64,000 bases of DNA from positions 124,001-188,000 of the forward strand of contig NZ_NNRM01000053.1 in NCBI RefSeq assembly GCF_002252525.1. The letters are read 5' to 3'. The position numbers and the translations under genes were made by a program. The notes beneath the pieces were generated by a model that saw only the letters and a list, made by a program, of their open reading frames with translations, was not told the DNA's origin and searched no databases. Source of the DNA: Brucella pseudogrignonensis. Lineage in GTDB: Bacteria; Pseudomonadota; Alphaproteobacteria; Rhizobiales; Rhizobiaceae. This document shows, piece after piece, positions 604-15,449 of the stretch (its first letter is position 1; the number at the start of each line of letters is the position of its first letter).

Positions 604-658
604 TGAGCAGTTGAACTGCTGGTAGAGGACAAGCATCGGTTCTGGAGGAGACGACCAC

Positions 659-2278
659 ATGCAGGATATCATTCTCGTCGCCAATGGCGACTTGCGTGAA
701 AGCGCGAATATTCAATGCTGGCCTGAACAGGCTAATATGGAAAGCCGTCTCATTGCGGCAATCGAGAAACTTGGCAGGAAAGCGGTACGCGGACACGGTA
801 TCGATCCAAAAACCGGCCACGGTTTCATTGCAACGCAAAAGCAGGGCATTGAGGTTTTCGCGAAGATCAATCGCGATGCACCGCTAATTGTTGCGGAAGC
901 GGTCTGGCAATATTCCCAGAATATTCTTGCAGGCCTCATCGCTCATCGTGGTCCGATCCTGACAGTCGCCAACTGGTCGGGAACCTATCCCGGCCTGGTT
1001 GGCCTGCTCAATCTTAACGGCTCACTGACAAAGGCGGGTGTCGAATATGCGTCGCTTTGGAGTGAAGATTTCACCGATCAGTGGTTTCTGAACAAGCTCG
1101 ATGAGTGGCTGAAAACAGGTAAGATTGCTTCACATGATACATCTCATGTGAAGTCGTTTAACCATGCGACTGTGCCGGTGCATCTGGTTGAGCAAGCTTC
1201 GCACATTGCAAAAGACCTTGTCGAAAACAGATCCATCATGGGCATTTTCGATGAGGGGTGCATGGGAATGTATAATGCGATCATTCCCGATGAGCTATTG
1301 TTTCCGATAGGTGTTTTCAAAGAACGCCTCTCGCAGTCGGCGCTCTATCATGCTGCGATCAATGTTTCTCAGGAGGATGCTCGGCAAGCCTATCAATGGT
1401 TGCTCGATGCTGGAATGACGTTTCATCTTGGCAAAGATGAAGCGCAGGAATTGACGGAAGCACAGGTGCTTGGTCAGTGCCAGACCTATATCGCTGCTGT
1501 ACGAATGGCAGAGCAGTTTGGATGCGAGACGATTGGTATCCAGTATCAGCAAGGCTTGAAAGATCTGCTTCCAGCATCCGACCTCGTTGAAGGACTTCTT
1601 AATAACGAGGATCGTCCGCCTGTGCGCAACGCAGAAGGAGAGATCATCCGTGAAGGTAAGGCCGTAGTTCATTTCAATGAAGTGGATGAATGCGCGGGTC
1701 TTGATGCTTTGATGATCAATCGCCTGCATCGTGCGCTTGGTGAGCCGGTCGAGACCACACTTCATGATCTGCGTTGGGGTGATATGGATCGAGGCGGGAC
1801 GACAGATGAATATGTCTGGGTGTTTGAGATTTCAGGTGCAGCGCCGCCTGCTCATCATGAGGGTGGCTATCGAGGATCGGATTCTGTGCGGCAGCCTCCG
1901 ATGTTTTTTGGTAAAGGTGGTGGCACCCTTCGTGGTATCGCAAAACCCGGTGAGCTGGTCTGGTCGCGCATCTATGTGGAAGATGGGCGGCTTAAAATGG
2001 ATATCGGCCGCGGAAAGGCGGTGGCGCTTTCTCCTCAGGAAACTGAGAGACGCTGGAATCTCACCAATCGAGAATGGCCGATGATGCACGGTGTGCTCTA
2101 TGGCGTCACCCGTGATCAGATGATGGCACGTCATAAGGCCAACCATATACAGGTTGTCTATTCGCATGATGTTTCTGCGGCAGACGATGCAATGCTGGCC
2201 AAGGCAAGTCTCGCACACCAGCTGGGCATTGAAGTTCATCTTTGCGGGACGCGCGCCAATGGTGCGCCATTGCAATAG
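659..2278 (+). CDS. L-fucose isomerase-like sugar isomerase family protein
   Basis: A 539-residue cytoplasmic protein of the fucose/arabinose isomerase superfamily. Visible blocks are [17 protein letters not shown] around residue 200, whose Glu matches the position of a metal/catalytic acid in fucose isomerases, [18 protein letters not shown] near 340, and [11 protein letters not shown] near 400. The family interconverts aldoses and ketoses with a divalent metal. The start ATG has GGAGGAG-like purines (ctggaggagacgacc) just upstream. It sits between an RraA-like gene and a FGGY carbohydrate kinase, so a simple reading is isomerisation of an aldose to a ketose that the kinase then phosphorylates. 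The sugar itself cannot be told from the sequence. Confidence 0.8.
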
Positions 2279-2376
2279 AGCAGAAAAAACCGGTTCCGAT
2301 TTTCTAACCGATGTTGTAGCCAAGACGCTGCAAGGAGTGCCGATTTGGCGCAACTTGCCTGCATGGGAGGCATAAG

Positions 2377-4005: not shown

Positions 4006-4046
4006 AGCATTTCCAGCAAAAGTGCGAAGCGGCTTTGCGTCGGATA
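4005..4046. repeat. Short palindromic repeat remnant
   Basis: The stretch AGCATTTCCAGCAAAAG followed by tgcgaagcgg and CTTTGCGTCGG has GCAAA/TTTGC arms. It closely resembles the scattered intergenic palindrome I remember from Brucella, Ochrobactrum and other Rhizobiales genomes. It lies in the gap between two convergent operons. The assignment is from memory, and only one copy is in this window. Confidence 0.45.
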
Positions 4047-4085
4047 TAGTGGTTCCAATTATCCTGTCTTAACTTTAGACGCAGT

Positions 4086-4107
4086 AAGCGGGTTTATTTA
4101 CCCGCTT
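4086..4107 (-). terminator. Hairpin at the end of the photolyase operon
   Basis: Perfect 8-bp arms AAGCGGGT (4086-4093) and ACCCGCTT (4100-4107) enclose the six bases TTATTT. The hairpin overlaps the stop codon of the photolyase gene. No T-run follows on the minus strand, so this may be an mRNA-stabilising stem rather than an intrinsic terminator. Confidence 0.45.
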
Positions 4108-5482
4108 TGGGTGCCTTGAAAACGGGAAGCGGGTAAGTTTTGCCAAGAACAATGCCCGCTTTCTGCAACACGTCTTCCGGTGCAGCATAGGGTTTATGGA
4201 TCCAACGATCCGGTAATGCGGCGATTTCTGGCACCCATTCGCGCACATATCCGCCGCCGGTATCGAATTTATCGCCTTGCAATACAGGATTGAACACGCG
4301 GAAATAGGGTGCCGCGTCCATGCCGCAACCTGCAACCCATTGCCAGCTCCCTGGATTGCTTGCGATATCTGCATCCACCAGCGTATCCCAGAACCATTTT
4401 TCGCCGTCGCGCCAATCGACCTGCATGTTTTTACTTAGGACTGACGCTACCAGCATCCGCACGCGGTTATGCATCCAGCCAGTAGCCCAGAGCTGGCGCA
4501 TCCCGGCATCAATCATTGGAACGCCGGTATTACCCTTTTTCCAGGCTTCGAACGCTTGTGGATTGCTCTGCCACTGAACGTCAGCCAGCGTATCGCGCAT
4601 ATCATTTTCAGCGATGTCCGGACGATAATAGAGCTGGTGATAGTGAAAATCGCGCCAGATCAGTTCGGAGAGAAATTTTTCACCGCCGGTCTGTGTGTCC
4701 GGATGCTCATCCATCAGCGAAAGCGTAGCATACCATGCCTGTCTTGGGCTGATTTCACCAAAGCGCAGATGCGGCGAAAGTTTCGATGTGCCTTCGACAT
4801 CCGGACGATCACGGTCGCCGGCATAATTGCGGATGGTCTCATCGAAGAAATGATATAACTGATCGATGGCAGCCGCTTCGCCTATCTCCCACAGGCCATT
4901 CATCTTTTTTGACCAGAAAGGCTGCTTGTAAGCTTCGCTTGCCGGTTTGTGCTTGAGGGTCGATGGTTCGGCTCTCCAGTCAGACGAGTGGAGCGGTCGG
5001 TTTACGCCCTGCTGACGCAGCGTTTTGGCATAAGGTGTAAAGACCTGATAAGGACCGCCGCTGCCGGTTTTGATCTCCCAGGGCTCAGCCAGAAGATTGC
5101 CTGCAAAAGACTCTACATTCAGCCCCTTGTCTTTCAACGTGGATTTGACGACTGCATCGACATCACGCTCCTGCGGCGCATAGCGCCGGTTCCAGAACAC
5201 CGTATCGAAGCTGTTTTCTTCAATCAGGCTCTCGATGATATCGAGTGCATCGCCGCGTGCCACCAGCAGCTCGACATTACGGTCGTTGAGGCTTTTTTCG
5301 AGTGAATTGAGACTCTGTTCCAGCCACCAGAGCACGGCACCTCCGGGTGCGCGCAATTGCGGATTGGTTTCATGCACATAAAGCGCTGTGATCTTGCCAC
5401 CCAGCTTAACGGCGGCTTGAAGGGCAGGATTGTCGGCAAGACGCAGATCGTTACGCAACCAGACAAGCGCATTCGCAGTCAT
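4094..5482 (-). CDS. phrB: Deoxyribodipyrimidine photolyase (class I)
   Basis: A 462-residue light-driven repair flavoprotein that splits pyrimidine dimers. The N-terminal antenna domain starts ALVWLRNDLRLADNPAL. The FAD domain shows TSKLSPHLRFGEISPR, LIWRDFHYHQLYYRP, GMRQLWATGWMHNRVRM and SNPGSWQWVAGCGMDAAP, followed by YFRVFNP; these are the flavin and DNA-binding blocks of class I CPD photolyases. Length is typical. It is the last gene of a leftward operon after a DUF1295 protein and a cyclopropane-synthase-like methyltransferase, with only 10 bp to the gene before it and an AAGGA ribosome site in that gap. Photolyase is a classical target of alphaproteobacterial RpoE-ChrR, and that pair is encoded 8 kb away. 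Confidence 0.95.
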   Translation of the reverse strand: MTANALVWLRNDLRLADNPALQAAVKLGGKITALYVHETNPQLRAPGGAVLWWLEQSLNSLEKSLNDRNVELLVARGDALDIIESLIEENSFDTVFWNRRYAPQERDVDAVVKSTLKDKGLNVESFAGNLLAEPWEIKTGSGGPYQVFTPYAKTLRQQGVNRPLHSSDWRAEPSTLKHKPASEAYKQPFWSKKMNGLWEIGEAAAIDQLYHFFDETIRNYAGDRDRPDVEGTSKLSPHLRFGEISPRQAWYATLSLMDEHPDTQTGGEKFLSELIWRDFHYHQLYYRPDIAENDMRDTLADVQWQSNPQAFEAWKKGNTGVPMIDAGMRQLWATGWMHNRVRMLVASVLSKNMQVDWRDGEKWFWDTLVDADIASNPGSWQWVAGCGMDAAPYFRVFNPVLQGDKFDTGGGYVREWVPEIAALPDRWIHKPYAAPEDVLQKAGIVLGKTYPLPVFKAPKAGK

Positions 5483-5492
5483 TGAATGATCC

Positions 5493-6521
5493 TTATTTGA
5501 CGGGCTTTAGGAGGTAATGTCCGACGCCCCAGATATCACCATTTTCGTGGCCGAACAGTCCGGCAGTCGCCAGAAAGAACAGCCGCCAGCGGCGTTCCCA
5601 AAGACTGGCATCCTGCCCATAGACCTGTTGCAGAATTGGCCTGATCTGATCAATCGAATTGTCGAAATTGTTCAGCCAATCCAAAGCTGTTTGCTGATAA
5701 TGGCGTCCAGACCAGCGCCAATCCTGCTCGACGGTGAAAATATCGTCGAAGCGATGCGGCAAGTCGAAGGCAGGCATGATGCCGCCAGTGAAGAAATGAT
5801 GTGCGATCCAGTCGGCAGGATTTTCATGGTTAAAGCGATAGGAACGATCGCGATGCGTGAAGACATGAATGAACAATCGTCCATCTGCATGAAGCCATCC
5901 GCGTACGCGTTCAAACAAGGATTGCCAGTTCGACATATGTTCAAACATTTCCACCGAAACCACACGATCAAAGCGCGGGTCGATGGAAAAATCGTTCATG
6001 TCGGCTGTAATAACGGTGAGGTTCTTAAGACCGCGCGTTGCTGCTTGTGCTTCGATATAGGCGCGCTGTGAGGCGGAGTTTGAAACGGAGACGATCCGCG
6101 CGTTGGGAAATTTTTCAGCGAGATAAAGCGACAATGAACCCCAGCCACAACCAAGCTCAAGAATGTCCATTCCATCGCCGATACCGGCATGGCGCACAGT
6201 TTCGCTGAGCGCATAGGTTTCCGCCTCCTCAAGCGTGGTGTTCTGATCCGGATAAAAGCAGCAGGAATATTTGCGTTGCGGACCCAGTGCCAATTCAAAA
6301 AACTGTGACGGCAGTTCGTAGTGCTGGCGGTTGGCATCATCCGTATGGGTAGCGACCGGGAAATCCTTCATGGTCTTCAGGAAATCCAGCTCGATCTGTT
6401 CAGATGTCCTAGCCAGTCGACGTTTGGTACGGGCGCAAAGATAATCGATACCCGCAAGCGTGATGGTATCGCTCAGAGGAACGCGCTCTGCAGCATTGAT
6501 TGCATATGCCAGCATATTCAT
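5493..6521 (-). CDS. Cyclopropane-fatty-acid-synthase-like SAM methyltransferase (first copy)
   Basis: A 342-residue class I SAM-dependent methyltransferase related to mycolic acid/cyclopropane synthases. HYELPSQFFELALGP and KYSCCFYPD match the substrate-facing entry block. ILELGCGWGSLSLYLAEKFP is motif I for SAM binding, and VVSVEMFEHMSNW is the post-II block with the Glu conserved in the family. It is shorter than true Cfa and lacks the usual N-terminal extension. Its start overlaps the stop of the upstream DUF1295 gene by four bases (ATGA), indicating translational coupling. Enzymes of this type methylate or cyclopropanate double bonds in phospholipid acyl chains. A second, more Cfa-like copy lies in the divergent operon, so the two may act at successive methylation steps (inference). 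Confidence 0.85.
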   Translation of the reverse strand: MNMLAYAINAAERVPLSDTITLAGIDYLCARTKRRLARTSEQIELDFLKTMKDFPVATHTDDANRQHYELPSQFFELALGPQRKYSCCFYPDQNTTLEEAETYALSETVRHAGIGDGMDILELGCGWGSLSLYLAEKFPNARIVSVSNSASQRAYIEAQAATRGLKNLTVITADMNDFSIDPRFDRVVSVEMFEHMSNWQSLFERVRGWLHADGRLFIHVFTHRDRSYRFNHENPADWIAHHFFTGGIMPAFDLPHRFDDIFTVEQDWRWSGRHYQQTALDWLNNFDNSIDQIRPILQQVYGQDASLWERRWRLFFLATAGLFGHENGDIWGVGHYLLKPVK

Positions 6522-7321
6522 GTTGAGGCTCCTGATCTTGCGGGGCTTTTTCGGGGACCGGGGAAAAACGCATTGACCCGGCTTTGCATGGCACGGAATT
6601 TTTCACCGCGCGATTTCAGCATGTGTTCTTCAAGCGGCGGGATGCCGGAGACATGCACCAGCAGCCAGTACATCTGGAGCGGTGCGAGCAGTGACAGCCA
6701 GCTCCATGGCGATGCGGTGATCGCCATCAGCGGCCACGCACACCAGAACAGCCATTCAAAGAAATAGTTCGGATGTCGGGAATAGGCCCAAAGGCCGGTT
6801 TCGCAAATTTCGGTCTTGGCTTCTGGCGTTTTGCGAAACTGCGCGAGCTGCGCGTCTGACAGGGCTTCACCAATCAATGCTATGGCGATGATTACTACCC
6901 CGATTATATCCCATAAAGATGGAAAAGCGGGGCGGCTAACAGCAGCGAGATAGACCGCCAGAACCAGCATGAAGGCTGCGAGAGCCTGTATCTGCAAAAA
7001 CCAGAAAAGGCGGGAAGAAGCATTTTCTCCCCATTCTTTTATCAGCTTTGCATAACGTGGGTCTTCACCATGGCCCATGCTTCGCTGCGCTATGTGTAAG
7101 CCAAGGCGAAGCGACCACGCCAGAATGAGGATCAGTATCGCGGAGCGCCGTTGCCATGTCACATCCGCAAGCATCACAGCTATGACTGAACCTAAACCTA
7201 CAGAGAATGACCAGATGGCATCGATCCAGCCGCTTTTGCCGCTCTTTCTTTCAAGCGCCCACGCGAGAGCCATGATGGCAGACAGGCTGATGGCAACAAT
7301 TAAAAGCAGACCGGGTTGCAT
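6518..7321 (-). CDS. DUF1295 membrane protein, steroid 5-alpha-reductase-like
   Basis: A 267-residue polytopic inner-membrane protein with about seven hydrophobic segments. The C-terminal half holds the DUF1295 / isoprenylcysteine methyltransferase-like signature GLWAYSRHPNYFFEWLFW, and WIDAIWSFSVG lies near the N-terminus. Relatives reduce or modify lipids using membrane-embedded substrates, but no exact reaction is known to me for this branch. It is the first gene of the leftward operon ending in photolyase and overlaps the methyltransferase by four bases. The 5' region faces a divergent operon encoding further lipid-modifying proteins, which supports a role in fatty acid modification. Confidence 0.85.
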   Translation of the reverse strand: MQPGLLLIVAISLSAIMALAWALERKSGKSGWIDAIWSFSVGLGSVIAVMLADVTWQRRSAILILILAWSLRLGLHIAQRSMGHGEDPRYAKLIKEWGENASSRLFWFLQIQALAAFMLVLAVYLAAVSRPAFPSLWDIIGVVIIAIALIGEALSDAQLAQFRKTPEAKTEICETGLWAYSRHPNYFFEWLFWCAWPLMAITASPWSWLSLLAPLQMYWLLVHVSGIPPLEEHMLKSRGEKFRAMQSRVNAFFPGPRKSPARSGAST

Positions 7322-7427
7322 GGTGGACCTTCAGCCGAGAGTTCGCTTTTTCTTCATCCAATACGTTCGGTCCGGCCGTTTGGTTTCGTAAGCAGCTCAA
7401 AAAAATGAAAAAAGTTTGGCCGCCAAT

Positions 7428-7457
7428 TGAACCAAACCCCTTCTCAAAACGTAAAAC
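7428..7457 (+). promoter_or_regulatory. Candidate RpoE (ECF11-type) promoter of the FAD oxidoreductase operon
   Basis: TGAACC (7428-7433), an 18-bp spacer, then TAAAAC (7452-7457). This parallels TGATCC-N18-TATGAG in front of rpoE in this window and the TGATCC-type -35 element I recall for Rhodobacter RpoE. It would start transcription near 7463, about 45 bp before the preferred ATG. I could not find an equally good element for the divergent DUF1295 operon. Confidence 0.45.
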
Positions 7458-7508
7458 GATGAAAATGCAGCAAACACGCGGCCCAAGCATGCGGTGAAGA
7501 GAGGGACT

Positions 7509-8864
7509 ATGGATATCACGAACCACTCGGGCAGCTCTAAACGTCTCAGGGTCGCGATTATCGGCAGCGGGATTTCCGGATTGTCGGCTGCATGGCTGCT
7601 TTCGCAACGCCATGATGTGACTGTGTTCGAAGCATCGGATCGCATCGGCGGCCACAGCAATACTGTTGAGTTTGAGAGCAGCCTCGGTCCGGTCGCGGTC
7701 GATACCGGGTTCATCGTCTATAATGAAGTGACCTATCCAAATCTGACTGCATTGTTTCGCACACTTGAAGTTCCAACCGCGGCATCGAGCATGTCATTTG
7801 CCGTTTCAGTCGGAAATGGTGCTTATGAATATTCGGGCGGCACGGGCCTCGGACTCTTTGCCCAGCGCTCCAATCTGGTTAGCCCGCGCTTCTGGTCGAT
7901 GATCCGTGATCTTTTGCGATTTTATCGCAATGCACCAAAAGACCTCGCCATTATGGGCGGAATTTCTCTGGATGATTATTTAGCACGTAATGGTTATGGC
8001 CGGGCTTTCCGGGAAGATCATCTCTATCCGATGGCGGCGGCGATCTGGTCCACTCCTGCGATGGAAGTGGGGCGATATCCGGCCGCAAGCTTCGTTCGCT
8101 TTTGCTGCAATCATGGTCTTCTGGCTCTTCGTGACAGGCCTATCTGGCGTACGGTATCCGGCGGCAGCCGGGAATATGTAAAGCGTATCACCAAACCCTA
8201 TGCAGACCGGATCAGGCTTTCGACACCGATCAAATCCGTTCGACGCTCTGAAAACTCTGTCGAATTGATTGACGGAAGCGGTATTTGCCATGTCTTCGAC
8301 GATGTCGTGATCGCCACTCATGCCGATCAGGCCTTGCGGATGCTGGCCGATCCGAGCGCGGATGAAAGCCGCATTCTCGGCGCGTTTCAATATTCACGTA
8401 ATGAAGCGGTGTTGCACAGCGATATGTCGCTGATGCCCAAACGCAGGGCGGCGTGGTCGAGCTGGAATTACCTTACCAACGCAGCCAATGGCCCGGCGCA
8501 GCCATCCATCACTTACTGGATGAACCGCCTGCAACCGCTGGGCCAGGCGCCCGAGACTTTTGTGACACTCAATCCATGTCGTGCGCCGCGTGAGGAACTG
8601 GTGATCCGTCGCGAGATCTATGAGCATCCGATTTTCGACATGGCAACGGATCGTGCGCAGAAGGAAATCTGGTCATTGCAGGGACAGCGCCGGACATGGT
8701 TTTGCGGTGCGCATTTCGGCTCCGGCTTTCATGAGGATGGGCTTCAGGCAGGTCTTGCCGTGGCAGAAGATCTCGGCGGCCTGCGCCGCCCGTGGCAGGT
8801 CGAGCAGGAAAGCGCCCGTATCGTTCGCCAGCCTTTGCCGGTCAGGGAAAGGGCGTTGGCATGA
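7509..8864 (+). CDS. FAD-dependent oxidoreductase (COG2907-type, amine-oxidase fold)
   Basis: A 451-residue flavoprotein with an N-terminal dinucleotide-binding motif VAIIGSGISGLSAAWLL, the following acidic residue in VFEASDRIGGHSNTVEF, and VDTGFIVYNEVTYPNL. The C-terminal GLQAGLAVAEDLGG closes the FAD site. The protein belongs to the amine oxidase/phytoene-desaturase-like superfamily. This branch is regularly found beside DUF1365 and cyclopropane synthase genes. A fatty-acyl desaturation or oxidation on phospholipids is a reasonable guess, possibly the step named UfaD in furan fatty acid synthesis. I start at ATG 7509 because AGAGGG precedes it; an in-frame GTG at 7494 would add five residues. 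Confidence 0.85.
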   Translation: MDITNHSGSSKRLRVAIIGSGISGLSAAWLLSQRHDVTVFEASDRIGGHSNTVEFESSLGPVAVDTGFIVYNEVTYPNLTALFRTLEVPTAASSMSFAVSVGNGAYEYSGGTGLGLFAQRSNLVSPRFWSMIRDLLRFYRNAPKDLAIMGGISLDDYLARNGYGRAFREDHLYPMAAAIWSTPAMEVGRYPAASFVRFCCNHGLLALRDRPIWRTVSGGSREYVKRITKPYADRIRLSTPIKSVRRSENSVELIDGSGICHVFDDVVIATHADQALRMLADPSADESRILGAFQYSRNEAVLHSDMSLMPKRRAAWSSWNYLTNAANGPAQPSITYWMNRLQPLGQAPETFVTLNPCRAPREELVIRREIYEHPIFDMATDRAQKEIWSLQGQRRTWFCGAHFGSGFHEDGLQAGLAVAEDLGGLRRPWQVEQESARIVRQPLPVRERALA

Positions 8865-9670
8865 CCGAACGTTTCCAGTCGGCACTGTTCCCCGGGCATG
8901 TGACCCACGCGCGTTTGCGGCCCAAGGTTCACAAGCTGGCCTATAAAATCTACTCGCTCCTGCTTGATCTCGACGAGTTGGAAGCGCTTGACGGTAAATT
9001 GAAGCTGTTCTCTCTCGACCGTTTTAATCTGTTTTCTTTCTACAGAAAAGACAGAGGCGATGGATCGACTGTGTCGCTGCGCGAACAGGTCGAACGTGCC
9101 ATGGATGCAGCCGGAGTAACGCCTGATGGCGGTGCGATCCGCCTGCTCACCATGCCGCGCATTGCAGGCTGGGCTTTCAATCCGCTGAGCGTTTTCTTCT
9201 GCTATAATCGTGGCGGCGAACTCGTGGCGATCCTTTGGGAAGTTGATAACACATTCCGCCAGCGCCACGGTTACATGATCCCCGTCGAGAACGCATCAAG
9301 CGGACGCATCGTGCAAAGCTGTGACAAGGCTTTTTACGTTTCGCCCTTCATGGATATGAAGCTGCTATATGAGTTTGAAGTCACCCCCCCCACAGACAGG
9401 CTCTCCATCCGCATCAACAGTTTTGACGATGAAGGCCTGCTTTTGACGGCTCGTCATCTGGCACGTCGGGTTGAACTGAGCGACGCCGCCCTGTTGAGTG
9501 CCTTCTTCGCAATTCCATTTCTCACCCTGAAAGTGGTGGGCGGTATTCACTGGGAAGCGCTGAAAATCTGGTTGAAGGGCATCGGTTTACGCAAACGACC
9601 CGCAGCGCCTGACACTCCCATCACATCTGTTCGTAACGAGACCGTCCAGCAGAGGAACAAGGCCGCATGA
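8861..9670 (+). CDS. DUF1365 domain protein
   Basis: A 269-residue protein that matches DUF1365 along its whole length: GHVTHARLRPKVHKLAYKIY at the start, FNLFSFYRKDRGDG, then RLLTMPRIAGWAFNPLSVFF, and WEVDNTFRQRHGYMIP. The biochemical role is not known to me; the family is linked to cyclopropane-type lipid modification by gene order and to RpoE control in Rhodobacter. The start is placed at ATG 8861 because it overlaps the upstream stop as ATGA; the longer open frame from 8792 runs inside the neighbour. The stop overlaps the next gene's ATG in the same way, so three proteins are made from one tightly coupled message. Confidence 0.85.
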   Translation: MTERFQSALFPGHVTHARLRPKVHKLAYKIYSLLLDLDELEALDGKLKLFSLDRFNLFSFYRKDRGDGSTVSLREQVERAMDAAGVTPDGGAIRLLTMPRIAGWAFNPLSVFFCYNRGGELVAILWEVDNTFRQRHGYMIPVENASSGRIVQSCDKAFYVSPFMDMKLLYEFEVTPPTDRLSIRINSFDDEGLLLTARHLARRVELSDAALLSAFFAIPFLTLKVVGGIHWEALKIWLKGIGLRKRPAAPDTPITSVRNETVQQRNKAA

Positions 9671-10899
9671 GCCAGCTCGACGAATATCATCCACTATCCG
9701 CATCAAGCCGGATCGAACGACCTGCTTTCAGCCCTTCAGCTATTGTGTTGAAACGGCTGTTGAAACAGGTCCAGCATGGTCGATTGGTGCTTTCGCTGCC
9801 CGGCGGTGAGGTTATTGCTGTCAATGGTCCATCACCCGGACCAGAAGCCAAGATCGCAATCGTTAAATGGAATAGCCTGCGCCGGTTGCTGACGGGTGGG
9901 GATATTGGCTTTGCGCAAGCCTATATCGAAGGCGAATGGACATCACCTGATCTAACCTCAGTCATCCGCTTTGCAGCGCGCAATCGCGATACGCTGCTCT
10001 CCACATTGCGTGGGTCGGGTTGGATGCGGGCGCTAAACCGTATCGGCCATCTGCTCAACGCCAATACACGGCGCGGCAGCCGCCGCAACATCGAAGCGCA
10101 TTACGATCTAGGCAATGATTTCTATGCCCGGTGGCTCGATCCTTCGATGCTTTATTCATCTGCGATCTGGAATGAGACGACGCATAGCCTTGAGAATGCG
10201 CAGGAGCAGAAGTTGCAGTGCATTGCTGAAAAACTGGCGCTTGAGGGCGGCGAAAAGATACTTGAAATCGGTTGCGGCTGGGGCGCCTTGGCGCGCTATC
10301 TCGCAGAATATGGCGACGCGCATGTGACGGGAATAACCCTGTCTCCATCGCAGCTCGCCTGGGCGCAAACTGCGGTTAAAGAGGTTGGGAAAAGCGACGC
10401 CGTTGATCTTCGCCTGCAGGATTACCGTGATGTGCAAGGTCAGTTTGACCGCATCGTATCGATCGAAATGTTTGAGGCCGTTGGCGAAGCCTATTGGCCG
10501 GAATATTTCGCAACCCTGAAGCGATGTCTCAAGCCCGGCGGTCGAGCCGTCTTGCAGGTCATTTCGATAGAAGAAACGCGTTACGAAAACTATCGCCGCA
10601 AAGCCGATTTCATCCAGAAGTTCATCTTTCCGGGCGGCTTTCTTCCGTCAGACAAAGTGCTTGAGCGCGATCTTGTTAAGGCCGGTCTGGTGTTAACGGA
10701 TACCGAGCATTTCGGTCATTCTTATGCGCTGACACTTGCCGAATGGCGTCAGCGCTTCATCGCCAATTGGCCGGAAATCGAAAAGCTTGGCTTTGATGAT
10801 AAATTCCGTAGGCTTTGGGAATACTACCTTTGCTATTGCGAAGGTGGGTTTGAGGAAGGCGCGATCAATGTCGGCCTTTATACGATTGAACATGCTTAG
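9667..10899 (+). CDS. cfa: Cyclopropane-fatty-acyl-phospholipid synthase family methyltransferase (second copy)
   Basis: A 410-residue SAM-dependent enzyme that modifies unsaturated acyl chains in membrane phospholipids. Residues 1-130 form the N-terminal Cfa domain. NIEAHYDLGNDFYARWLDP starts the catalytic domain, MLYSSAIW follows, and LEIGCGWGALARYLAEYG is the SAM loop. VSIEMFEAVGEAYWPEYF carries the conserved Glu, and FIQKFIFPGGFLPS is the substrate gate. All typical Cfa blocks are present, so activity is expected. It follows DUF1365 with an ATGA overlap. Whether it makes cyclopropane rings or adds a methyl branch (UfaM-like) cannot be told from motifs alone. Confidence 0.9.
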   Translation: MSQLDEYHPLSASSRIERPAFSPSAIVLKRLLKQVQHGRLVLSLPGGEVIAVNGPSPGPEAKIAIVKWNSLRRLLTGGDIGFAQAYIEGEWTSPDLTSVIRFAARNRDTLLSTLRGSGWMRALNRIGHLLNANTRRGSRRNIEAHYDLGNDFYARWLDPSMLYSSAIWNETTHSLENAQEQKLQCIAEKLALEGGEKILEIGCGWGALARYLAEYGDAHVTGITLSPSQLAWAQTAVKEVGKSDAVDLRLQDYRDVQGQFDRIVSIEMFEAVGEAYWPEYFATLKRCLKPGGRAVLQVISIEETRYENYRRKADFIQKFIFPGGFLPSDKVLERDLVKAGLVLTDTEHFGHSYALTLAEWRQRFIANWPEIEKLGFDDKFRRLWEYYLCYCEGGFEEGAINVGLYTIEHA

Positions 10900-10929
10900 G
10901 CTCCATACCCACTGACGGAGGAGGCGTCG

Positions 10930-11298
10930 ATGAAATGGATACTGACGATCAGCATGATGACGGTGTTGTTTTCCTTCTCGGCGCATGCGGCTGAGATCAA
11001 CGGCAACTGGGCGCGTGGGGATGGCAACGCGCGGGTAAGAATTGCCGGATGCGGCAAGGATATCTGCGCCACAAACACATGGATCAAGCCTGGAACACCC
11101 AAAGAGAAAACTGGCGACCGGCTGGTGATGAGTATCAACGAGACTGCAGACGGGCGATATTCAGGCACTGCTTTCGACCCGCAACGCAACCTGACCTACA
11201 AGATCAGCGTGAAAGTCGACGGCGATAGTATGACGACCAATGGCTGCGTTTTGGCTGGCCTCCTGTGTCGCAATGTGGGCTGGACCCGCATCAAATAA
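10930..11298 (+). CDS. DUF2147 periplasmic protein
   Basis: A 122-residue secreted protein. A signal peptide of about 20 residues ends at SAHA before AEINGNW. The mature part is DUF2147-like: GNWARGDGNARVRIAGCG at the start and GCVLAGLLCRNVGWTR at the end, with four cysteines (GCGKDIC, GCVL, LLCR) that could form disulfides in the periplasm. Small lipocalin-like beta-barrel proteins of this group have no firmly known ligand. It starts 30 bp after the cyclopropane synthase with GGAGGAGG ahead of its ATG, so it belongs to the same operon. Confidence 0.8.
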   Translation: MKWILTISMMTVLFSFSAHAAEINGNWARGDGNARVRIAGCGKDICATNTWIKPGTPKEKTGDRLVMSINETADGRYSGTAFDPQRNLTYKISVKVDGDSMTTNGCVLAGLLCRNVGWTRIK

Positions 11299-11313
11299 GA
11301 GAGTGAGCGATCG

Positions 11314-11718
11314 ATGAAAGATTATCTCATCGCCTATATGGTGACGGCGGTTGCATTCTTGGCAATCGACTCCGTGTGGTTATCCAACATGGCGAATGTG
11401 TTTTACCGCCCTGTCATGGGCGACATGCTTGCGCCGAGTTTTCGTCTTGCACCGGCTATCGTTTTCTATGTGATCTTCGTGTTCGGACTGATTTTCTTCG
11501 CGGTGAGGCCCGGACTTGTTGCTGGCAGTGGCACAGTTACGCTTGTTCATGGAGCGCTTTTGGGGTTTGTCGCCTATGCGACTTATGATCTGACCAATCA
11601 GGCCACCTTGAAAAACTGGTCGTGGACCCTGACGATTGCAGACCTGATCTGGGGCACTGTTCTGTCTGCAGTGTCAGCCTATATTGGCTATTGGGTTACG
11701 TCGCGGATCAGCGGATAG
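11314..11718 (+). CDS. DUF2177 family membrane protein
   Basis: A 134-residue protein with four hydrophobic segments. It matches DUF2177 in DSVWLSNMANVFYRPVMGDM near the N-terminus and in the GALLGFVAYATYDLTNQAT block at mid-length. No function is known to me. It follows the DUF2147 gene by 15 bp with a GAGAGTGAG ribosome site and precedes tspO by 14 bp. The association of DUF2177 with photolyase and cyclopropane genes is also part of the RpoE-linked neighbourhood in other alphaproteobacteria (recalled, not checked). Confidence 0.8.
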   Translation: MKDYLIAYMVTAVAFLAIDSVWLSNMANVFYRPVMGDMLAPSFRLAPAIVFYVIFVFGLIFFAVRPGLVAGSGTVTLVHGALLGFVAYATYDLTNQATLKNWSWTLTIADLIWGTVLSAVSAYIGYWVTSRISG

Positions 11719-11732
11719 ACTGGAGTAATCAT

Positions 11733-12185
11733 ATGCAAAAATTGGGGCTTCTGGCCGTCTTCGCCTTCGTCATTATTGTTGTCGGAATGGCAATCGGCAT
11801 CGGTTTCCCGCCGGGCGAATGGTATGCATCGCTTCAAAAGCCGTGGTTTACCCCGCCTAACGCCGCCTTTGGCCCCATTTGGACGATACTTTATATCTTC
11901 ATTGCCATTGCAGGCTGGCGTACATGGATAAGTGACAGTGGGTGGCAGCGGCACGGATCATGGTTTGGTCAGATGATTTTAAACTTCATCTGGACGCCTA
12001 TTTTCTTTGGCGCTCATATGACAGTGCTGGGACTTGTCGTAATCATCGGGGTCTGGCTTTGCGTGCTTCTGTTTATTCTTCGCGCATGGCGACCAGATCG
12101 TATCTCGGCGCTACTATTCGTGCCTTATCTCATATGGCTATCGCTGGCGACCGCACTGAACGCGGCAATTGTCGTTTTGAACTAA
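11733..12185 (+). CDS. tspO: TspO/MBR family tryptophan-rich sensory protein
   Basis: A 150-residue five-helix membrane protein of the TspO/peripheral benzodiazepine receptor family. Conserved features are WYASLQKPWFTPPNAAFGPI, WTILYIFIAIAGWRTW, NFIWTPIFFGAHM and the terminal WLSLATALNAAIVVLN. Bacterial TspO binds porphyrins and takes part in oxygen and light stress responses in Rhodobacter. The start is ATG 11733 with TGGAG upstream; a longer frame from 11622 overlaps the preceding gene and is not used. It is the last gene of the rightward lipid operon and is followed directly by a terminator. Confidence 0.92.
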   Translation: MQKLGLLAVFAFVIIVVGMAIGIGFPPGEWYASLQKPWFTPPNAAFGPIWTILYIFIAIAGWRTWISDSGWQRHGSWFGQMILNFIWTPIFFGAHMTVLGLVVIIGVWLCVLLFILRAWRPDRISALLFVPYLIWLSLATALNAAIVVLN

Positions 12186-12188
12186 CAA

Positions 12189-12218
12189 AAAAGGCGGCAT
12201 ATTTGCCGCCTTTTCTTT
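12189..12218. terminator. Bidirectional intrinsic terminator
   Basis: Eleven-base arms AAAAGGCGGCA (12189-12199) and TGCCGCCTTTT (12204-12214) enclose TATT. A-tracts and T-tracts flank both sides, so it should stop transcription of tspO from the left and chrR from the right. Confidence 0.85.
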
Positions 12219-12876
12219 AGATGCCAATCAAGGGCTGAACCAGCCGCATAAGCCAGCTCTGGAATTTGAGCGGAGCGTCAGTCACCGCCAGACAGATGCA
12301 ATCCCCATCGGGTGAGGCAATCGGCTGATGCACAAGATCACCATCCGCTTCCTCAATGTCGCCACGAGCGAAAAGCCCGGTTTCGTCATGGAAACTACCG
12401 CTTAGCACCAATGTCAGTTCGCGACCGCCGTGCCCATGCTCGGGCACTGGCTTCCCCGCTGGAATTTTCAACAAGCGAACCTGTGTTTCGCTATCGCGCG
12501 TTTCGATGGGCACCTGATAAGCGCCTCGACCGAGCGATTTCCATTTCAAATCCGGTAAGTCGCCACCGACATAGGATCGCAGCGGTTCCGGTATCACGGC
12601 AGGCATTTTTATCTCGGCGCGTGGTGCCGAATGCACTGTTGACTGCGGTGCCTTCTGGAGCCTGTCTTTAAAACTATCCCATGTGGAAGCTTCAAGTTTC
12701 GTTGGCTCAACCGTTTCAAGAAGTTGACCACCTATGCACTCGAAATGGTTCAAGCGAGAGCGACACTGAGGGCAGAGTGCAAGATGAGTGGCTACAGCGA
12801 TGCTCCAGCCTTCTGCCAGTGTGCCAGCGGCATAGCTTGAAAGGAGTTCATCGCTCAGATGATGCTTGATATCCAT
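12217..12876 (-). CDS. chrR: Anti-sigma factor ChrR
   Basis: A 219-residue cytoplasmic zinc protein that holds RpoE inactive until singlet oxygen or a related oxidant appears. The anti-sigma domain has the zinc ligands His6, His31, Cys35 and Cys38 (HLALCPQC), at exactly the positions described for Rhodobacter sphaeroides ChrR. The C-terminal half is a cupin whose metal ligands are visible as His147, His149, Glu153 and His183 (PEHGHGGRE and DLVHQP), again matching ChrR with a shift of six. The start overlaps the stop of rpoE by one base, so both are made in fixed ratio. All residues needed for zinc binding and for the response domain are intact. Confidence 0.93.
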   Translation of the reverse strand: MDIKHHLSDELLSSYAAGTLAEGWSIAVATHLALCPQCRSRLNHFECIGGQLLETVEPTKLEASTWDSFKDRLQKAPQSTVHSAPRAEIKMPAVIPEPLRSYVGGDLPDLKWKSLGRGAYQVPIETRDSETQVRLLKIPAGKPVPEHGHGGRELTLVLSGSFHDETGLFARGDIEEADGDLVHQPIASPDGDCICLAVTDAPLKFQSWLMRLVQPLIGI

Positions 12877-13451
12877 CAGTGCGCTCCCGAATTATCGAGC
12901 GCTGCGCGCAATTTGCTGAATGCAAGTCGAAGCCGGGATTTGACGGTGCCAAGCGGAAGGTTAAGCTTCTTTGCGATGGCGCTATGCGTGCTTTCCTCGA
13001 AATAAGCCAGTTCAAGCAGGGTGCATTGTTCCTTCGGTAAGTCAGCCATTGCGGCGCGTAACTGGCTGGCAGATTGCCGCTCGGCAATCCTCAAATCGGC
13101 TGGCTGCTCCTCATCGGGTACGAAGGCCGGATCGGTTGGGTCAAATTCCGGGCGTCGGGCGCGCCGCACTGCATCAATGCGCTGGTTGCGTGCGATGGTG
13201 AAAATCCAGGTCGACAAGGCTCCTTTGGAAAAATCAAACTGATCCGCCTTGTTCCAGACCGTAATCATGGTCTCTTGCATTAATTCTTCCGCTGTTTGCG
13301 TATCGGCAGACAGTTTGGCCATATAGGCCTTCACCCGGGGTGCGAAATGCTTAAAAATCGCCTCGAATGCGTCCACGTCGCGTCGGGAACTGACCGCCAG
13401 CATCAATTCCTCCAATGAGGGCTGATTTTCAGAAGCAGTCCGTTCATTCAT
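12876..13451 (-). CDS. rpoE: ECF sigma factor RpoE (ECF11 type, partner of ChrR)
   Basis: A group IV sigma factor. Region 2 includes AEELMQETMITVWNKADQF and GALSTWIFTIARNQRID; region 4 includes HSAIAKKLNLPLGTVKSRLR. I place the start at ATG 13451 (191 residues), close to the usual length. The frame is open up to an ATG at 13556 (226 residues), but the likely autoregulatory promoter at 13562-13591 would put the transcript start almost on that codon. Together with ChrR it forms the singlet-oxygen response switch. Nearby photolyase, cyclopropane-type and TspO genes are the expected targets. Confidence 0.9.
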   Translation of the reverse strand: MNERTASENQPSLEELMLAVSSRRDVDAFEAIFKHFAPRVKAYMAKLSADTQTAEELMQETMITVWNKADQFDFSKGALSTWIFTIARNQRIDAVRRARRPEFDPTDPAFVPDEEQPADLRIAERQSASQLRAAMADLPKEQCTLLELAYFEESTHSAIAKKLNLPLGTVKSRLRLAFSKLRAALDNSGAH

Positions 13452-13561
13452 CCGTATTGAATCCCGTACGCTCAGATGTGGCGAAGCCAGAAGCAGCAAA
13501 TTGCGCTCTACTTTCTTGTGCCATGTCTGTGAGCCAAAGGAAACGTTTGTATTCATGAAGC

Positions 13562-13591
13562 CTCATACGAAGGCTAGATGAAACTGGATCA
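13562..13591 (-). promoter_or_regulatory. Candidate autoregulated RpoE promoter of rpoE-chrR
   Basis: On the minus strand TGATCC (13591-13586) is followed by 18 bases and TATGAG (13567-13562). TGATCC is the -35 element I recall for ECF11 sigma factors. The spacer equals that of the TGAACC-N18-TAAAAC element before the FAD oxidoreductase operon. Confidence 0.5.
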
Positions 13592-13610: not shown

Positions 13611-15449
13611 TCAGTTTTTTGCATTCAACGATTTCGCTTTGACCGTCGGTGCCTGATCTGCGTATTGACCGAGATCCCGCAATAAGACAGTTGCCTTTTC
13701 GTAATTGACGGCCTTGGAGAAGGCATAGCCCTGGCCGAGCTGGCATCCCATCTGCTGCAGCTTTTCAGCAAGGGCCATAGTCTCGACCCCCTCGGCAACG
13801 AGTTTGATCTTCAGGTCTCCGGCAATTTGTACGATACCTTTGACGATTGCGACACTTGGGTCGCCCGGTGCCAACCTGCATACGAACGACTTGTCGATTT
13901 TGATAATATCGACGGGGACCGTGAGGAGATGCGCAAGGGCAGCGAACCCCGTTCCAAAGTCATCAAGAGCAATGCGGACGCCGAGCATTCGGAGGTTTCG
14001 AATGCCAGAAGCCACCACGTCATCGCGTTGACCGATATAGGCGTTTTCCGTCACTTCGATAATCAGATGTCGCAGTGGTACGTCATATTTGGCGAAAGTT
14101 TTAGACACAAAAGCCGCAAGATCGCCGACATAAAAGTCGGCAGCTGTCACGTTCACGCCAATATGTTGCACAGGCAGACCGAGATCGAGCCAGCGCCTAA
14201 TGTCCTGAGCAACGATGGTGAGCATATACTGCGTGATTTCGGATGCGATATGCACATCCGAAAAGGATTCCTGAAATACCGACGCTGGTAGAATATCGCC
14301 CGACGTTGTGGTCATGCGGCTTAGAGCCTCAAAACCTATGACTTCCCTGGTGTCGAGCCGCATTACGGGCTGATAATGCGCAGTGATACGCTTTTGATCG
14401 AGTGCTTCGCGCACTTCTCGGATCGAATTGCGTCGATGGACAATGCGCGTATCAACGTTCGGTTGATAGCGTATAAAGCTGCCGCGCGCATTTTCCTTGG
14501 CGTGGTAAAGCGCAAAGTCTGCATTGCGGCGCACGATCTGCGGCTGTGTATCTTGTGCGGCTAGAACAGCGCCGCCAATAGTCACACGTGGCAGGATTGT
14601 CTGACCGTCAAATTCGACATGCGAGGAAAGTGATTTAAAGATCAACTCCGCCGTGTGGTCGAGATCGTAAAGTGCGCTGTGGCTTTGGATGATGACGGTA
14701 AATTCATCGCCGCCCGTCCGGAAAGTTATGTCCGGTGCCATTGCTACCGAAATGCTGGTTGCGATAGTGTGGATCAGAAAATCTCCGACCTCATGGCCGA
14801 ATGTATCGTTGGTAACTTTGAGATTGTCGATATCGATGACGAACAAGGCCCAGCTGCCAGCCAGTTCGCAGCGCAATTGTGAAAGCGCGTCATCAAATGC
14901 GGCACGATTGGGAAGTCCTGTTTGTTCGTCAACTGTCGCTCTGCGCTCATAGTTGAGAATGCGCATTTCACGCGCCATCGCAAGATTGCAGAGCGTTGCA
15001 CCCGTATTGATCACTTGCTGCTCTTGTGCCGACGGGGTGTGCTTTTTGCTGAAATAGACAGCCAACGCGCCGACGACCTCACCAGTCTCGTTCCGTATAG
15101 GTACAGAACTACAGGCCAGCAAACCAAAGGGCAGCACGCATTTCTTGTAGGTTGCCCACTTCGGATCATTTTCTATATCGGCAACGCTTACAGCGGCGTT
15201 GTGATAGATCGCGCTTCCGCAGGAGCCGACTTCCGGGCCGACCACTGTTCCGTCCAGTATTTTGCCATAGCTTTCAGGGATGCCCGGTGCTGCAAGCAGG
15301 TGCATCATGCCTGCACTATCGACAGAGCAGACCATCACGCTTGCGTCAGCGATCAGCTCCTCCATCTCAAGACAGAGTTGCACAAGTGTCTGCTCCAGAG
15401 GCTTGCCTCTTGCAATCAGCTCAAGAACAATGTTCTGGAATTTAAGCAC
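13611..15449 (-). CDS. GAF-GGDEF-EAL cyclic-di-GMP enzyme
   Basis: A 612-residue soluble signalling protein without membrane segments. An N-terminal GAF domain (about 10-160) is followed by a GGDEF domain with an intact RTGGDEFT site near 245 and an EAL domain from about 345. The EAL domain keeps GFEALSRM, the Asn of NVTAADF, the Glu of EVTENAY, DDFGTGF, the Lys of KIDKSF and EGVET, so both cyclic-di-GMP synthesis and hydrolysis are possible on sequence grounds. The GAF domain contains several cysteines (VGSCGSA, KKCVLPFGLLACSS), which could sense a ligand or redox state. It ends 20 bp before the rpoE promoter on the same strand but is probably separately transcribed. Confidence 0.93.
   Translation of the reverse strand: MLKFQNIVLELIARGKPLEQTLVQLCLEMEELIADASVMVCSVDSAGMMHLLAAPGIPESYGKILDGTVVGPEVGSCGSAIYHNAAVSVADIENDPKWATYKKCVLPFGLLACSSVPIRNETGEVVGALAVYFSKKHTPSAQEQQVINTGATLCNLAMAREMRILNYERRATVDEQTGLPNRAAFDDALSQLRCELAGSWALFVIDIDNLKVTNDTFGHEVGDFLIHTIATSISVAMAPDITFRTGGDEFTVIIQSHSALYDLDHTAELIFKSLSSHVEFDGQTILPRVTIGGAVLAAQDTQPQIVRRNADFALYHAKENARGSFIRYQPNVDTRIVHRRNSIREVREALDQKRITAHYQPVMRLDTREVIGFEALSRMTTTSGDILPASVFQESFSDVHIASEITQYMLTIVAQDIRRWLDLGLPVQHIGVNVTAADFYVGDLAAFVSKTFAKYDVPLRHLIIEVTENAYIGQRDDVVASGIRNLRMLGVRIALDDFGTGFAALAHLLTVPVDIIKIDKSFVCRLAPGDPSVAIVKGIVQIAGDLKIKLVAEGVETMALAEKLQQMGCQLGQGYAFSKAVNYEKATVLLRDLGQYADQAPTVKAKSLNAKN

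What the first reader, a model, noticed from the sequence alone, without database searches (positions are those of the whole stretch)
4094..13556. RpoE-ChrR-linked lipid-modification island, possibly a furan fatty acid pathway
Two divergent, translationally coupled operons carry two cyclopropane-synthase-like methyltransferases, a COG2907-type FAD oxidoreductase, DUF1365, DUF1295, photolyase, DUF2147, DUF2177 and TspO, and end at the rpoE-chrR pair. In Rhodobacter, RpoE-ChrR answers singlet oxygen and controls photolyase, cyclopropane-type and related genes. In Rhodobacter sphaeroides and Rhodopseudomonas palustris, methylated furan fatty acids are made by UfaM (methylase), UfaD (desaturase), UfaO (oxygen-adding) and FufM (second methylase). 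The two methylases and the flavoprotein here would fit UfaM/FufM and UfaD, and DUF1365 or DUF1295 could take the UfaO place. A non-phototroph having the complete unit would be notable: photo-oxidative lipid chemistry without photosynthesis.
Basis: partly seen in the sequence, partly recalled or inferred. Interest (0 to 1): 0.72.

Follow-up and report, generated by a model that had tools for sequence, protein, structure and literature searches.

The report
Complete furan fatty acid gene island
A bacterium without photosynthesis genes carries, beside a singlet-oxygen alarm switch, the full gene set predicted to turn membrane fats into oxygen-quenching furan fats, together with two uncharacterised partner genes whose families are also switched on by singlet oxygen in a green alga.

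Summary
The island is real and the furan fatty acid (FuFA) reading holds. Window 7509-10899 is ufaD-ufaO-ufaM in the Rhodopseudomonas palustris order (47/44/44% identity). UfaO is DUF1365, not DUF1295 (PMC7380195). The short methyltransferase at 5493-6521 is FufM: 57% identical over its length to the R. palustris protein and in one clade with it. RpoE-ChrR match the solved Rhodobacter pair. Promoter-like sites precede three operons (motif chosen post hoc) and recur in three congeners and Cereibacter.

'Non-phototroph' is not the news: the core sigmaE-ChrR/FuFA regulon is known in non-phototrophs (PMC6852236), and 159 of 297 sampled family genomes have DUF1365.

New here: (i) in that sample FufM never occurs without DUF1365 (38 of 38), yet three congeners keep the island without fufM, a natural experiment; (ii) a second island in the genome; (iii) DUF1295 and DUF2177 track the pathway, and both families, with CFA1, CFA2 and DUF1365, are SAK1-dependent singlet-oxygen genes in Chlamydomonas (PMC4067076), suggesting an ancient shared module. 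Chemistry is untested.

The parts
4094..5482 (-). class I DNA photolyase (phr), last gene of the minus operon
   Evidence: Pfam FAD_binding_7 1.7e-80 and DNA_photolyase 1.7e-47; the C. johrii photolyase lies next to ufaM there
5493..6521 (-). fufM, FuFA C-methyltransferase (9M5 to 9D5 furan acid, predicted)
   Evidence: 57.5% identical over 341 aa to R. palustris XCP FufM; FufM clade 99/99; nearest solved relatives coclaurine N-methyltransferases 6gkv 1.4e-61 against Cfa 7qos 1.7e-27
6518..7321 (-). DUF1295 membrane protein related to steroid 5-alpha-reductase, translationally coupled partner of fufM
   Evidence: PF06966 1.8e-69, Steroid_dh 2.4e-9; immediately upstream of fufM in 37 of 37 other loci of the family; profile hits 7c83 E 0.0035 and 7bw1 E 0.016
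7362..7387 (-). RpoE(ECF11)-type promoter-like site of the DUF1295-fufM-phr operon: GAAACC-N16-CGTA
   Evidence: present before DUF1295 in three congeners
7428..7453 (+). RpoE(ECF11)-type promoter-like site of the ufaD operon: TGAACC-N16-CGTA
   Evidence: present before ufaD in three congeners; strict motif upstream of 28 of 81 ufaD reading frames, 0.15 expected from shuffles
7509..8864 (+). ufaD, flavin desaturase of 11-methyl-octadecenoyl chains (predicted)
   Evidence: 47% over 428 aa to R. palustris UfaD, 45% over 413 to C. johrii; Amino_oxidase and NAD_binding_8
8861..9670 (+). ufaO (DUF1365), O2-dependent furan-forming enzyme (predicted)
   Evidence: PF07103 2.9e-75; 44% over 239 aa to R. 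palustris UfaO; R. palustris XCP has only this one DUF1365; DUF1365 named as the UfaO domain in PMC7380195
9667..10899 (+). ufaM, SAM-dependent methylase of cis-vaccenoyl chains (predicted)
   Evidence: 44% over 403 aa to R. palustris UfaM, 46% over 380 to C. johrii; UfaM clade separate from Cfa at 100/99
10930..11298 (+). DUF2147 small protein with a signal-like start
   Evidence: PF09917 1.4e-12; recurrent in the islands; signal-like start read by eye
11314..11718 (+). DUF2177 membrane protein
   Evidence: PF09945 8.6e-44; 135 of 139 DUF2177 genomes of the family sample also have DUF1365
11733..12185 (+). TspO/MBR family membrane protein
   Evidence: PF03073 4e-38
12193..12207 (.). terminator-like stem between the convergent tspO and chrR ends
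   Evidence: 1 found, mean 0.2 in shuffles
12217..12876 (-). chrR, zinc anti-sigma factor
   Evidence: best solved match R. sphaeroides ChrR 2z2s 6.8e-56; H6, H31, C35, C38 and the cupin HxH-x3-E...H aligned (the ligand roles are recalled)
12876..13556 (-). rpoE, ECF11-type sigma factor
   Evidence: best solved match R. sphaeroides RpoE 2q1z_A 8.4e-41, next 1.1e-18
13566..13591 (-). autoregulatory RpoE-type promoter-like site TGATCC-N16-CGTA
   Evidence: same type of site before rpoE in three congeners and in C. johrii

Best explanation
A consolidated singlet-oxygen defence island. When ChrR is destroyed, RpoE reads three promoters: its own, the ufaD operon and the DUF1295 operon. UfaM methylates cis-vaccenoyl chains of phospholipids, UfaD desaturates the product to the 10,12-diene, UfaO inserts O2-derived oxygen to close the furan ring (9M5-FuFA), and FufM adds a second ring methyl (9D5-FuFA). 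The furan chains quench singlet oxygen in the membrane and, as in Rhodobacter, probably help trigger ChrR turnover; photolyase repairs DNA. Shown here: gene identity, order, orthology to tested enzymes, promoter-like sites and their recurrence. Inferred: the chemistry and regulation in this organism. DUF1295 and DUF2177 are most likely accessory proteins of the same pathway; their reactions are unknown, and for DUF1295 an NADPH-dependent double-bond reductase is favoured by its relatives.
For: Identity and synteny with Rhodopseudomonas and C. johrii; tree; fufM also directly preceded by DUF1295 in 4 of 4 Rhodopseudomonas genomes; the R. palustris XCP FufM and its Cfa-like gene are 28% and 37% identical to C. 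johrii UfaM, fitting the 26% and 38% given for RPA0924 and RPA3082 against R. sphaeroides UfaM (PMC7380195); experimental functions in R. sphaeroides and R. palustris (PMC7380195); RpoE/ChrR to solved structures; promoter-like sites; in the family sample FufM only with DUF1365: 38 of 38 (own genome included), against 121 of 259 without FufM; ufaD in the stretch in 39 of 39 FufM-less ufaO loci (39 of the 40 best-scoring such DUF1365 hits); no reaction-centre match in the genome.
Against: No lipid or expression data. Identities of 44-47% would allow a change in chain-length or product specificity. UfaO to C. johrii is only 34%. The window motif was written down after seeing the three sites, so '3 found, 0.40 expected' is partly circular; 53 of 81 ufaD upstream regions lack the strict form. 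On three of the four annotated rhizobial plasmid islands looked at, ufaO is missing while DUF1295-fufM stays; whether ufaO lies elsewhere in those strains was not tested. In three of nine other class genomes fufM has no ufaD or ufaO in the fetched 19 kb (L028, L029, L030), and those genomes were not searched for DUF1365.
Confidence: 0.86

Rival explanations
1. Ordinary cyclopropane island: both methyltransferases are cyclopropane synthases and the flavoprotein, DUF1365 and DUF1295 are bystanders.
For: Pfam and NCBIfam name both as CMAS/Cfa-like; Cfa induction in oxidative stress is common (general knowledge).
Against: Both score under the nearest Cfa equivalog cut-off (286 and 148 bits against 400); the genome has two further full-length CMAS genes, one of them grouping with a second R. 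palustris CMAS gene; UfaM falls with the orthologues of tested UfaM proteins apart from Cfa at 100/99 and FufM with that of tested FufM; FufM is nearer to coclaurine methyltransferases than to Cfa.
Confidence: 0.05
2. Monomethyl pathway only: UfaM, UfaD and UfaO work as in Rhodobacter, but the window FufM has moved to another substrate such as the 11-methyl diene.
For: FufM is 57% identical, not nearly identical, to the orthologue of the tested enzyme; DUF1295-fufM modules stay on three rhizobial plasmids where ufaO is gone from the island, and no ufaD lies in the fetched stretch in 16 of 37 family loci, one of them on a 5.4-kb contig.
Against: At genome level FufM never occurs without DUF1365 in the family sample (38 of 38), as expected if it needs the furan product; the window FufM lies in one supported clade with R. 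palustris FufM.
Confidence: 0.12
3. DUF1295 and DUF2177 are only passengers of a mobile stress island, with no part in the furan pathway.
For: Single deletions of other genes of the ufa operon, RSP1087, 1088 and 1089, did not change the R. sphaeroides lipids (PMC7380195), so passengers occur; Lactococcus lactis rings for both families but not for DUF1365; 14 of 28 FufM-less genomes with both DUF1295 and DUF1365 have them more than 10 kb apart or on different contigs (two further genomes could not be placed because the match list was cut).
Against: DUF1295 precedes fufM in 37 of 37 loci and 68 of 71 DUF1295 genomes have DUF1365; dN/dS 0.17-0.19 between congeners that lack fufM; both families are among the 104 SAK1-dependent singlet-oxygen genes of Chlamydomonas together with CFA1, CFA2 and DUF1365 (PMC4067076).
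Confidence: 0.3

Closest known systems
RPA2571-2570-2569 (ufaD-ufaO-ufaM) plus RPA0923-0924 (fufM) of Rhodopseudomonas palustris
   Same: same enzymes, same ufaD-ufaO-ufaM order, and a DUF1295 gene directly before fufM in the strains compared
   Different: two separate loci there, one island beside rpoE-chrR here; no reaction-centre match in this genome
RpoE-ChrR core regulon of Rhodobacter sphaeroides (rpoE-chrR, RSP1087, 1088, 1090, 1091, photolyase RSP2143, cfaS/ufaM RSP2144)
   Same: rpoE, chrR, ufaD, ufaO, ufaM and photolyase; C. johrii shows the TGATCC-N16-CGTA type of site (gene list from PMC5507510)
   Different: one locus here; adds fufM, DUF1295, DUF2147, DUF2177 and TspO; no short-chain dehydrogenase (RSP1087 type) among the island's proteins
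Island on Rhizobium tropici CIAT 899 plasmid pRtrCIAT899a (annotated as cyclopropane synthases and DUFs)
   Same: the island's gene families except photolyase, 60-79% identical for ufaD/O/M, fufM and DUF1295
   Different: plasmid-borne; its rpoE and chrR are more distant (39% and 37%); carries a further small gene after fufM where the window has photolyase
SAK1-dependent singlet-oxygen genes of Chlamydomonas reinhardtii
   Same: CFA1, CFA2 (named coclaurine N-methyltransferase in that paper's Table 9), DUF1365, DUF2177 and DUF1295 all in the first 25 rows of its Table 5 (PMC4067076)
   Different: eukaryotic regulator, genes not in one locus by their identifiers; sequences could not be compared here; furan acids not shown there (PMC8491031 says it is under study)

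Membership tests
UfaM-UfaD-UfaO furan fatty acid pathway | orthologues of all three tested enzymes | tested here: met
   UfaM/UfaD/UfaO 44/47/44% to R. palustris XCP, 46/45/34% to C. johrii, conserved order, UfaM clade 100/99. Strains compared are relatives of the tested strains, not CGA009 or 2.4.1
UfaM-UfaD-UfaO furan fatty acid pathway | UfaO is a DUF1365 protein | tested here: met
   PF07103 2.9e-75; a single DUF1365 in each of four Rhodopseudomonas genomes and C. johrii
UfaM-UfaD-UfaO furan fatty acid pathway | production of 11-methyl-octadecenoate, the methyl diene and 9M5-FuFA | not testable with these tools
   needs lipid analysis
FufM | orthology to RPA0924 | tested here: met
   57.5% over 341 aa to the R. 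palustris XCP homologue; clade 99/99. The XCP protein is taken as RPA0924-type because it is 28% identical to C. johrii UfaM, its sister gene 37%, against 26% and 38% in PMC7380195; CGA009 itself was not compared
FufM | methylates 9M5-FuFA to 9D5-FuFA | not testable with these tools
   needs an enzyme assay
ECF11 RpoE-ChrR pair | sigma factor and zinc cupin anti-sigma factor most like the R. sphaeroides pair | tested here: met
   2q1z_A 8.4e-41 and 2z2s 6.8e-56 among solved proteins
ECF11 RpoE-ChrR regulon | RpoE-type promoters before the target operons | tested here: inconclusive
   three sites, recurring in three congeners and C. johrii, but the motif was fitted to the window sites and transcription was not measured
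cyclopropane fatty acid synthase (Cfa) | reaches the curated Cfa equivalog score | tested here: not met
   286 and 148 bits against a cut-off of 400 for the best-scoring model
steroid 5-alpha-reductase superfamily (DUF1295) | sequence relation to solved members and conserved NADPH-contact positions | tested here: inconclusive
   Steroid_dh 2.4e-9; 7c83 E 0.0035, 7bw1 E 0.016; D156 and N185 invariant in 15 of 15, the roles of the SRD5A2 counterparts recalled; the structure job did not finish

The most novel reading that the evidence does not exclude
The island is one form of an ancient singlet-oxygen module shared by proteobacteria and green algae: UfaM/UfaD, UfaO, FufM, DUF1295 and DUF2177. 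In it DUF1295 is an NADPH-dependent membrane reductase that recycles spent furan acids. Oxidised furan acids become dioxoenes (enediones); a 5-alpha-reductase-type enzyme would reduce the enedione to a 1,4-diketone, which can lose water and close to the furan again, with DUF2177 possibly assisting. The membrane antioxidant would then be catalytic rather than consumed. Membership of DUF1295 and DUF2177 in the module alone I put near 0.55; the recycling chemistry is the bold part.
Probability: 0.1. Interest if true: 0.85.

Novelty: new member of a known kind. Interest (0 to 1): 0.52.

Why it matters
The bacterial furan fatty acid pathway was worked out in two phototrophs (PMC7380195). A one-locus set with both methylases in a non-phototroph, plus congeners that keep the rest but lack fufM, gives a clean natural comparison of mono- and dimethyl furan acids. 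It also supplies two concrete candidates, DUF1295 and DUF2177, for missing steps or upkeep of the pathway, and ties their families to an algal singlet-oxygen response whose lipid products were still under study in 2021 (PMC8491031). If either proves to act on furan lipids, it would bear on how membranes survive singlet oxygen in bacteria, algae and, by the Arabidopsis homologues (PMC10940516), perhaps plants.

Tried and rejected
Rejected: DUF1295 as UfaO (UfaO is DUF1365, PMC7380195). Rejected: a recurrent DUF1295-FufM gene fusion. Long open frames reported for several genomes proved not to be in-frame fusions (37 loci); only the C38 copy reads through as one frame, and its DUF1295 part lacks a stretch. 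Set aside: FufM working without UfaO; plasmid islands suggested it, but all 38 FufM genomes of the family sample have DUF1365; it is not excluded for three class genomes (L028-L030).

My own notes corrected: the note that fufM lies next to ufaD in 7 of 9 other class genomes was wrong; one search shows ufaD in 6 of 9 fetched stretches. The note that the C38 island has no RpoE site holds for the strict motif; a one-mismatch form lies before its ufaD.

Led nowhere: naming the organism (16S search found none and rang in only 9 of 14 controls; no near plasmid match for 20 kb); a structure of DUF1295 (not finished); literature on 11-methyl acids in one suspected related genus (listing only, nothing usable). 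The other nine exact TGATCC-N16-CGTA sites of the genome were not followed up. An unannotated plasmid record was opened without use.

Counts: Fisher values ignore relatedness of genomes. The FufM-less sample of 39 loci was the 40 best-scoring DUF1365 hits in FufM-less genomes less one: G374, at a contig end, was left out, and by the coordinates it has DUF1295 within 3 kb, so '5 of 39 with DUF1295' would be 6 of 40. The 81 ufaD frames count L035 twice (split gene). The tree used 20 of 56 UfaM and 18 of 56 FufM frames. Plasmid islands: 5 records opened (one unannotated, not analysed) of 84 with at least 80% coverage.
Full report
What is there. The window is C48:124001-188000 of a 5.53-Mb assembly. 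Between 4094 and 13556 lie two divergent operons and the rpoE-chrR pair. Minus strand: DUF1295 (6518-7321), a CMAS-type methyltransferase (5493-6521, 4-nt overlap), photolyase (4094-5482). Plus strand: flavoprotein (7509-8864), DUF1365 (8861-9670) and full-length CMAS (9667-10899) with 4-nt overlaps, then DUF2147, DUF2177 and TspO. rpoE (12876-13556) and chrR (12217-12876) run towards TspO, with a terminator-like stem between.

Test against the known enzymes. In PMC7380195 (parts 1-4 of 7 read; passages) UfaM, UfaD and UfaO convert cis-vaccenoyl chains to 9M5-FuFA; UfaO is a DUF1365 protein; FufM (RPA0924) makes 9D5-FuFA; in R. palustris the first three are RPA2569, 2571 and 2570. I reached named Rhodopseudomonas genomes and Cereibacter johrii through a RubisCO scan, searched five of them for CMAS and DUF1365 and fetched 11 stretches. 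Window proteins against R. palustris XCP: UfaD 47% over 428 aa, UfaO 44% over 239, UfaM 44% over 403, FufM 57.5% over 341, DUF1295 45% over 271; against C. johrii UfaD 45%, UfaO 34%, UfaM 46%. The order ufaD-ufaO-ufaM is the same in all four Rhodopseudomonas genomes, and DUF1295 stands directly before fufM in all four. The XCP FufM is 28% and its Cfa-like gene 37% identical to C. johrii UfaM, near the 26% and 38% that the paper gives for RPA0924 and RPA3082. A 43-row tree puts the window UfaM in a 20-row clade with Rhodopseudomonas and C. johrii UfaM (100/99), apart from four Cfa-like rows, and the window FufM in a 15-row clade with Rhodopseudomonas FufM (99/99); the coclaurine methyltransferase and one own CMAS row have long branches of unsure place. 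Both proteins miss the Cfa equivalog cut-off. FufM is nearer to plant coclaurine N-methyltransferases (6gkv, 1.4e-61) than to Cfa (7qos, 1.7e-27) among solved proteins.

Regulation. RpoE and ChrR match the R. sphaeroides pair best among solved proteins (2q1z_A 8.4e-41, next 1.1e-18; 2z2s 6.8e-56). Sites of the form KRAWCC-N16-CGTA occur three times in 64 kb, before rpoE, ufaD and DUF1295; 0.40 expected, 0 of 100 shuffles with three or more. I fitted the degenerate form to these sites, so the number overstates the case. Less circular: in three congeners the same three promoters are kept while spacers differ, and C. johrii has TGATCC-N16-CGTA before rpoE, ufaD and the photolyase. The strict motif lies within 250 nt upstream of 28 of 81 ufaD frames (0.15 expected from shuffles, 0 for the backward pattern), 16 of 62 DUF1295 frames, and almost never before inner genes: fufM 1 of 56, ufaM 0 of 56, ufaO 1 of 76. 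53 of 81 ufaD regions lack the strict form.

Distribution. Of 289 sampled genomes of the class, 10, own genome included, have FufM (E at most 1e-60). In the family sample of 297, 38 have FufM (E at most 1e-80), 159 DUF1365, 71 DUF1295, 139 DUF2177. All 38 FufM genomes have DUF1365, against 121 of 259 others; all 38 have DUF1295, against 33 of 259; 68 of 71 DUF1295 genomes and 135 of 139 DUF2177 genomes have DUF1365, while 24 of 159 DUF1365 genomes lack DUF2177 (relatedness not corrected). In the 37 other FufM loci of the family DUF1295 is directly upstream each time; in 16 of the 37 no ufaD lies in the fetched stretch. In 39 FufM-less loci ufaD is in the stretch in 39 and DUF1295 in 5 (one more locus, left out, has DUF1295 within 3 kb). 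In the nine other class loci ufaD is in the stretch in 6 and DUF1295 in 7, directly upstream of fufM in 5; the three without ufaD were not searched for DUF1365. So within the family FufM comes only with UfaO, and DUF1295 is tied to FufM, less so outside it.

A natural experiment. Of five other sampled species of the genus, none has FufM; two lack DUF1365 and three have it. Those three carry the same island at 81-94% protein identity, with DUF1295 and the same promoters, but no fufM. In two of them DUF1295 is followed by a few bases like the start of fufM and then photolyase; in the third no photolyase lies in the fetched stretch (one remnant was found by BLAST over 18 nt, the other by eye). 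This reads as loss of an ancestral fufM. DUF1295 stays under purifying selection between fufM-less species (dN/dS 0.17-0.19, against 0.06-0.10 for ufaD and ufaM), so it probably has a role beyond serving FufM. Prediction: monomethyl furan acids in these three, dimethyl in the window's species.

A second island. The genome has another ufaD-ufaO-ufaM set on C38 (77, 66 and 63% identical), divergent from one open frame holding DUF1295 and FufM (74% for the FufM part), beside a different sigma/anti-sigma pair of the RskA type. Its G+C is 59% against 53% for the window, and its FufM groups with the R. tropici plasmid copy (100/98). It looks acquired; its DUF2147 appears frame-shifted, and its DUF2177 and DUF1295 are shortened. 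Similar islands lie on rhizobial plasmids, of which I looked at four with annotation: with all families but photolyase on R. tropici pRtrCIAT899a, partly eroded on R. johnstonii 3841 pRL12, Rhizobium sp. C104 and Sinorhizobium sp. B11.

The wider link. PMC4067076 (passages, and part 1 of 4 of one section) lists 104 SAK1-dependent singlet-oxygen genes of Chlamydomonas. They include CFA1, CFA2 (called coclaurine N-methyltransferase in its Table 9), DUF1365, DUF2177 and DUF1295, all in the first 25 rows of its Table 5; these are families of this island. A 2021 review (PMC8491031, passages) connects the CFA genes with furan acids, does not name DUF1365, DUF1295 or DUF2177, and says the question is under study. 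Searches of the held open-access library for DUF1365 with DUF1295 (1 paper, PMC4067076), furan fatty acid with Chlamydomonas (2 papers, one opened) and DUF1295 with fatty acid (6 papers, one opened, the others seen as a listing) showed me no statement that DUF1295 or DUF2177 belongs to the furan pathway. Arabidopsis homologues of UfaM/UfaD, UfaO and FufM have been named (PMC10940516, passages; PMC12712439, passages). I could not compare algal sequences.

What DUF1295 may do. Pfam links it to steroid 5-alpha-reductase (2.4e-9); a 15-row profile finds 7c83 (E 0.0035), 7bw1 (0.016) and an isoprenylcysteine methyltransferase (0.12). Two positions aligned with NADPH-contact residues of SRD5A2 (roles recalled) are invariant in 15 of 15 rows. 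Furan acids oxidise to dioxoenes (PMC12595405 and PMC2914009, passages, radical route). A reductase of that enedione would fit, and ring re-closure is known chemistry of 1,4-diketones (recalled). This is conjecture. FufM made 9D5-FuFA when added to R. sphaeroides and in vitro (PMC7380195), so DUF1295 does not seem to be needed for that step.

Known or new. The core regulon, in photosynthetic and non-photosynthetic species, is in print (PMC6852236 and PMC5507510, passages; 45 of 73 species per the latter). The genome has no reaction-centre match, so 'non-phototroph' is right but not surprising. The island is a new, unusually complete member of a known kind; the accessory pair and the algal parallel are the part worth pursuing.

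Noticed in passing
L011 (G000:C38:174001-193500), 3267-12929: Second, higher-G+C ufa island with DUF1295 and FufM in one open frame, a seemingly frame-shifted DUF2147 and a shortened DUF2177, next to an ECF sigma / RskA-type anti-sigma pair; a fasciclin-domain gene lies nearby (3267-3911), and a fasciclin-like gene is also in the algal SAK1 list.
   Followed up: partly
L033 (R. johnstonii 3841 pRL12), 8805-9405: ufaM is in pieces and ufaO is absent from the island while DUF1295, fufM, rpoE and chrR remain; ufaO is also missing from the islands of L032 and L035, and ufaD of L035 is split.
   Followed up: no
L032 13041-13583 and counterparts in other loci: A small gene annotated as hypothetical (about 180 aa) follows fufM in 32 of 37 family loci; the window has photolyase in that place.
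   Followed up: no
window 15614-16941: A second ECF sigma gene (16390-16941) overlapping a 259-aa protein without any Pfam match, possibly an unusual anti-sigma factor.
   Followed up: no
window 13611-15449: GAF-GGDEF-EAL protein directly upstream of rpoE on the same strand.
   Followed up: no
own genome, nine other sites: Exact TGATCC-N16-CGTA occurs ten times (1 for the backward control); only the rpoE site was examined, the rest may include further regulon members.
   Followed up: no
window 10-4005: RraA-like, distant fucose-isomerase-like and FGGY pentulose-kinase genes in a row, a probable sugar pathway beside the island.
   Followed up: no
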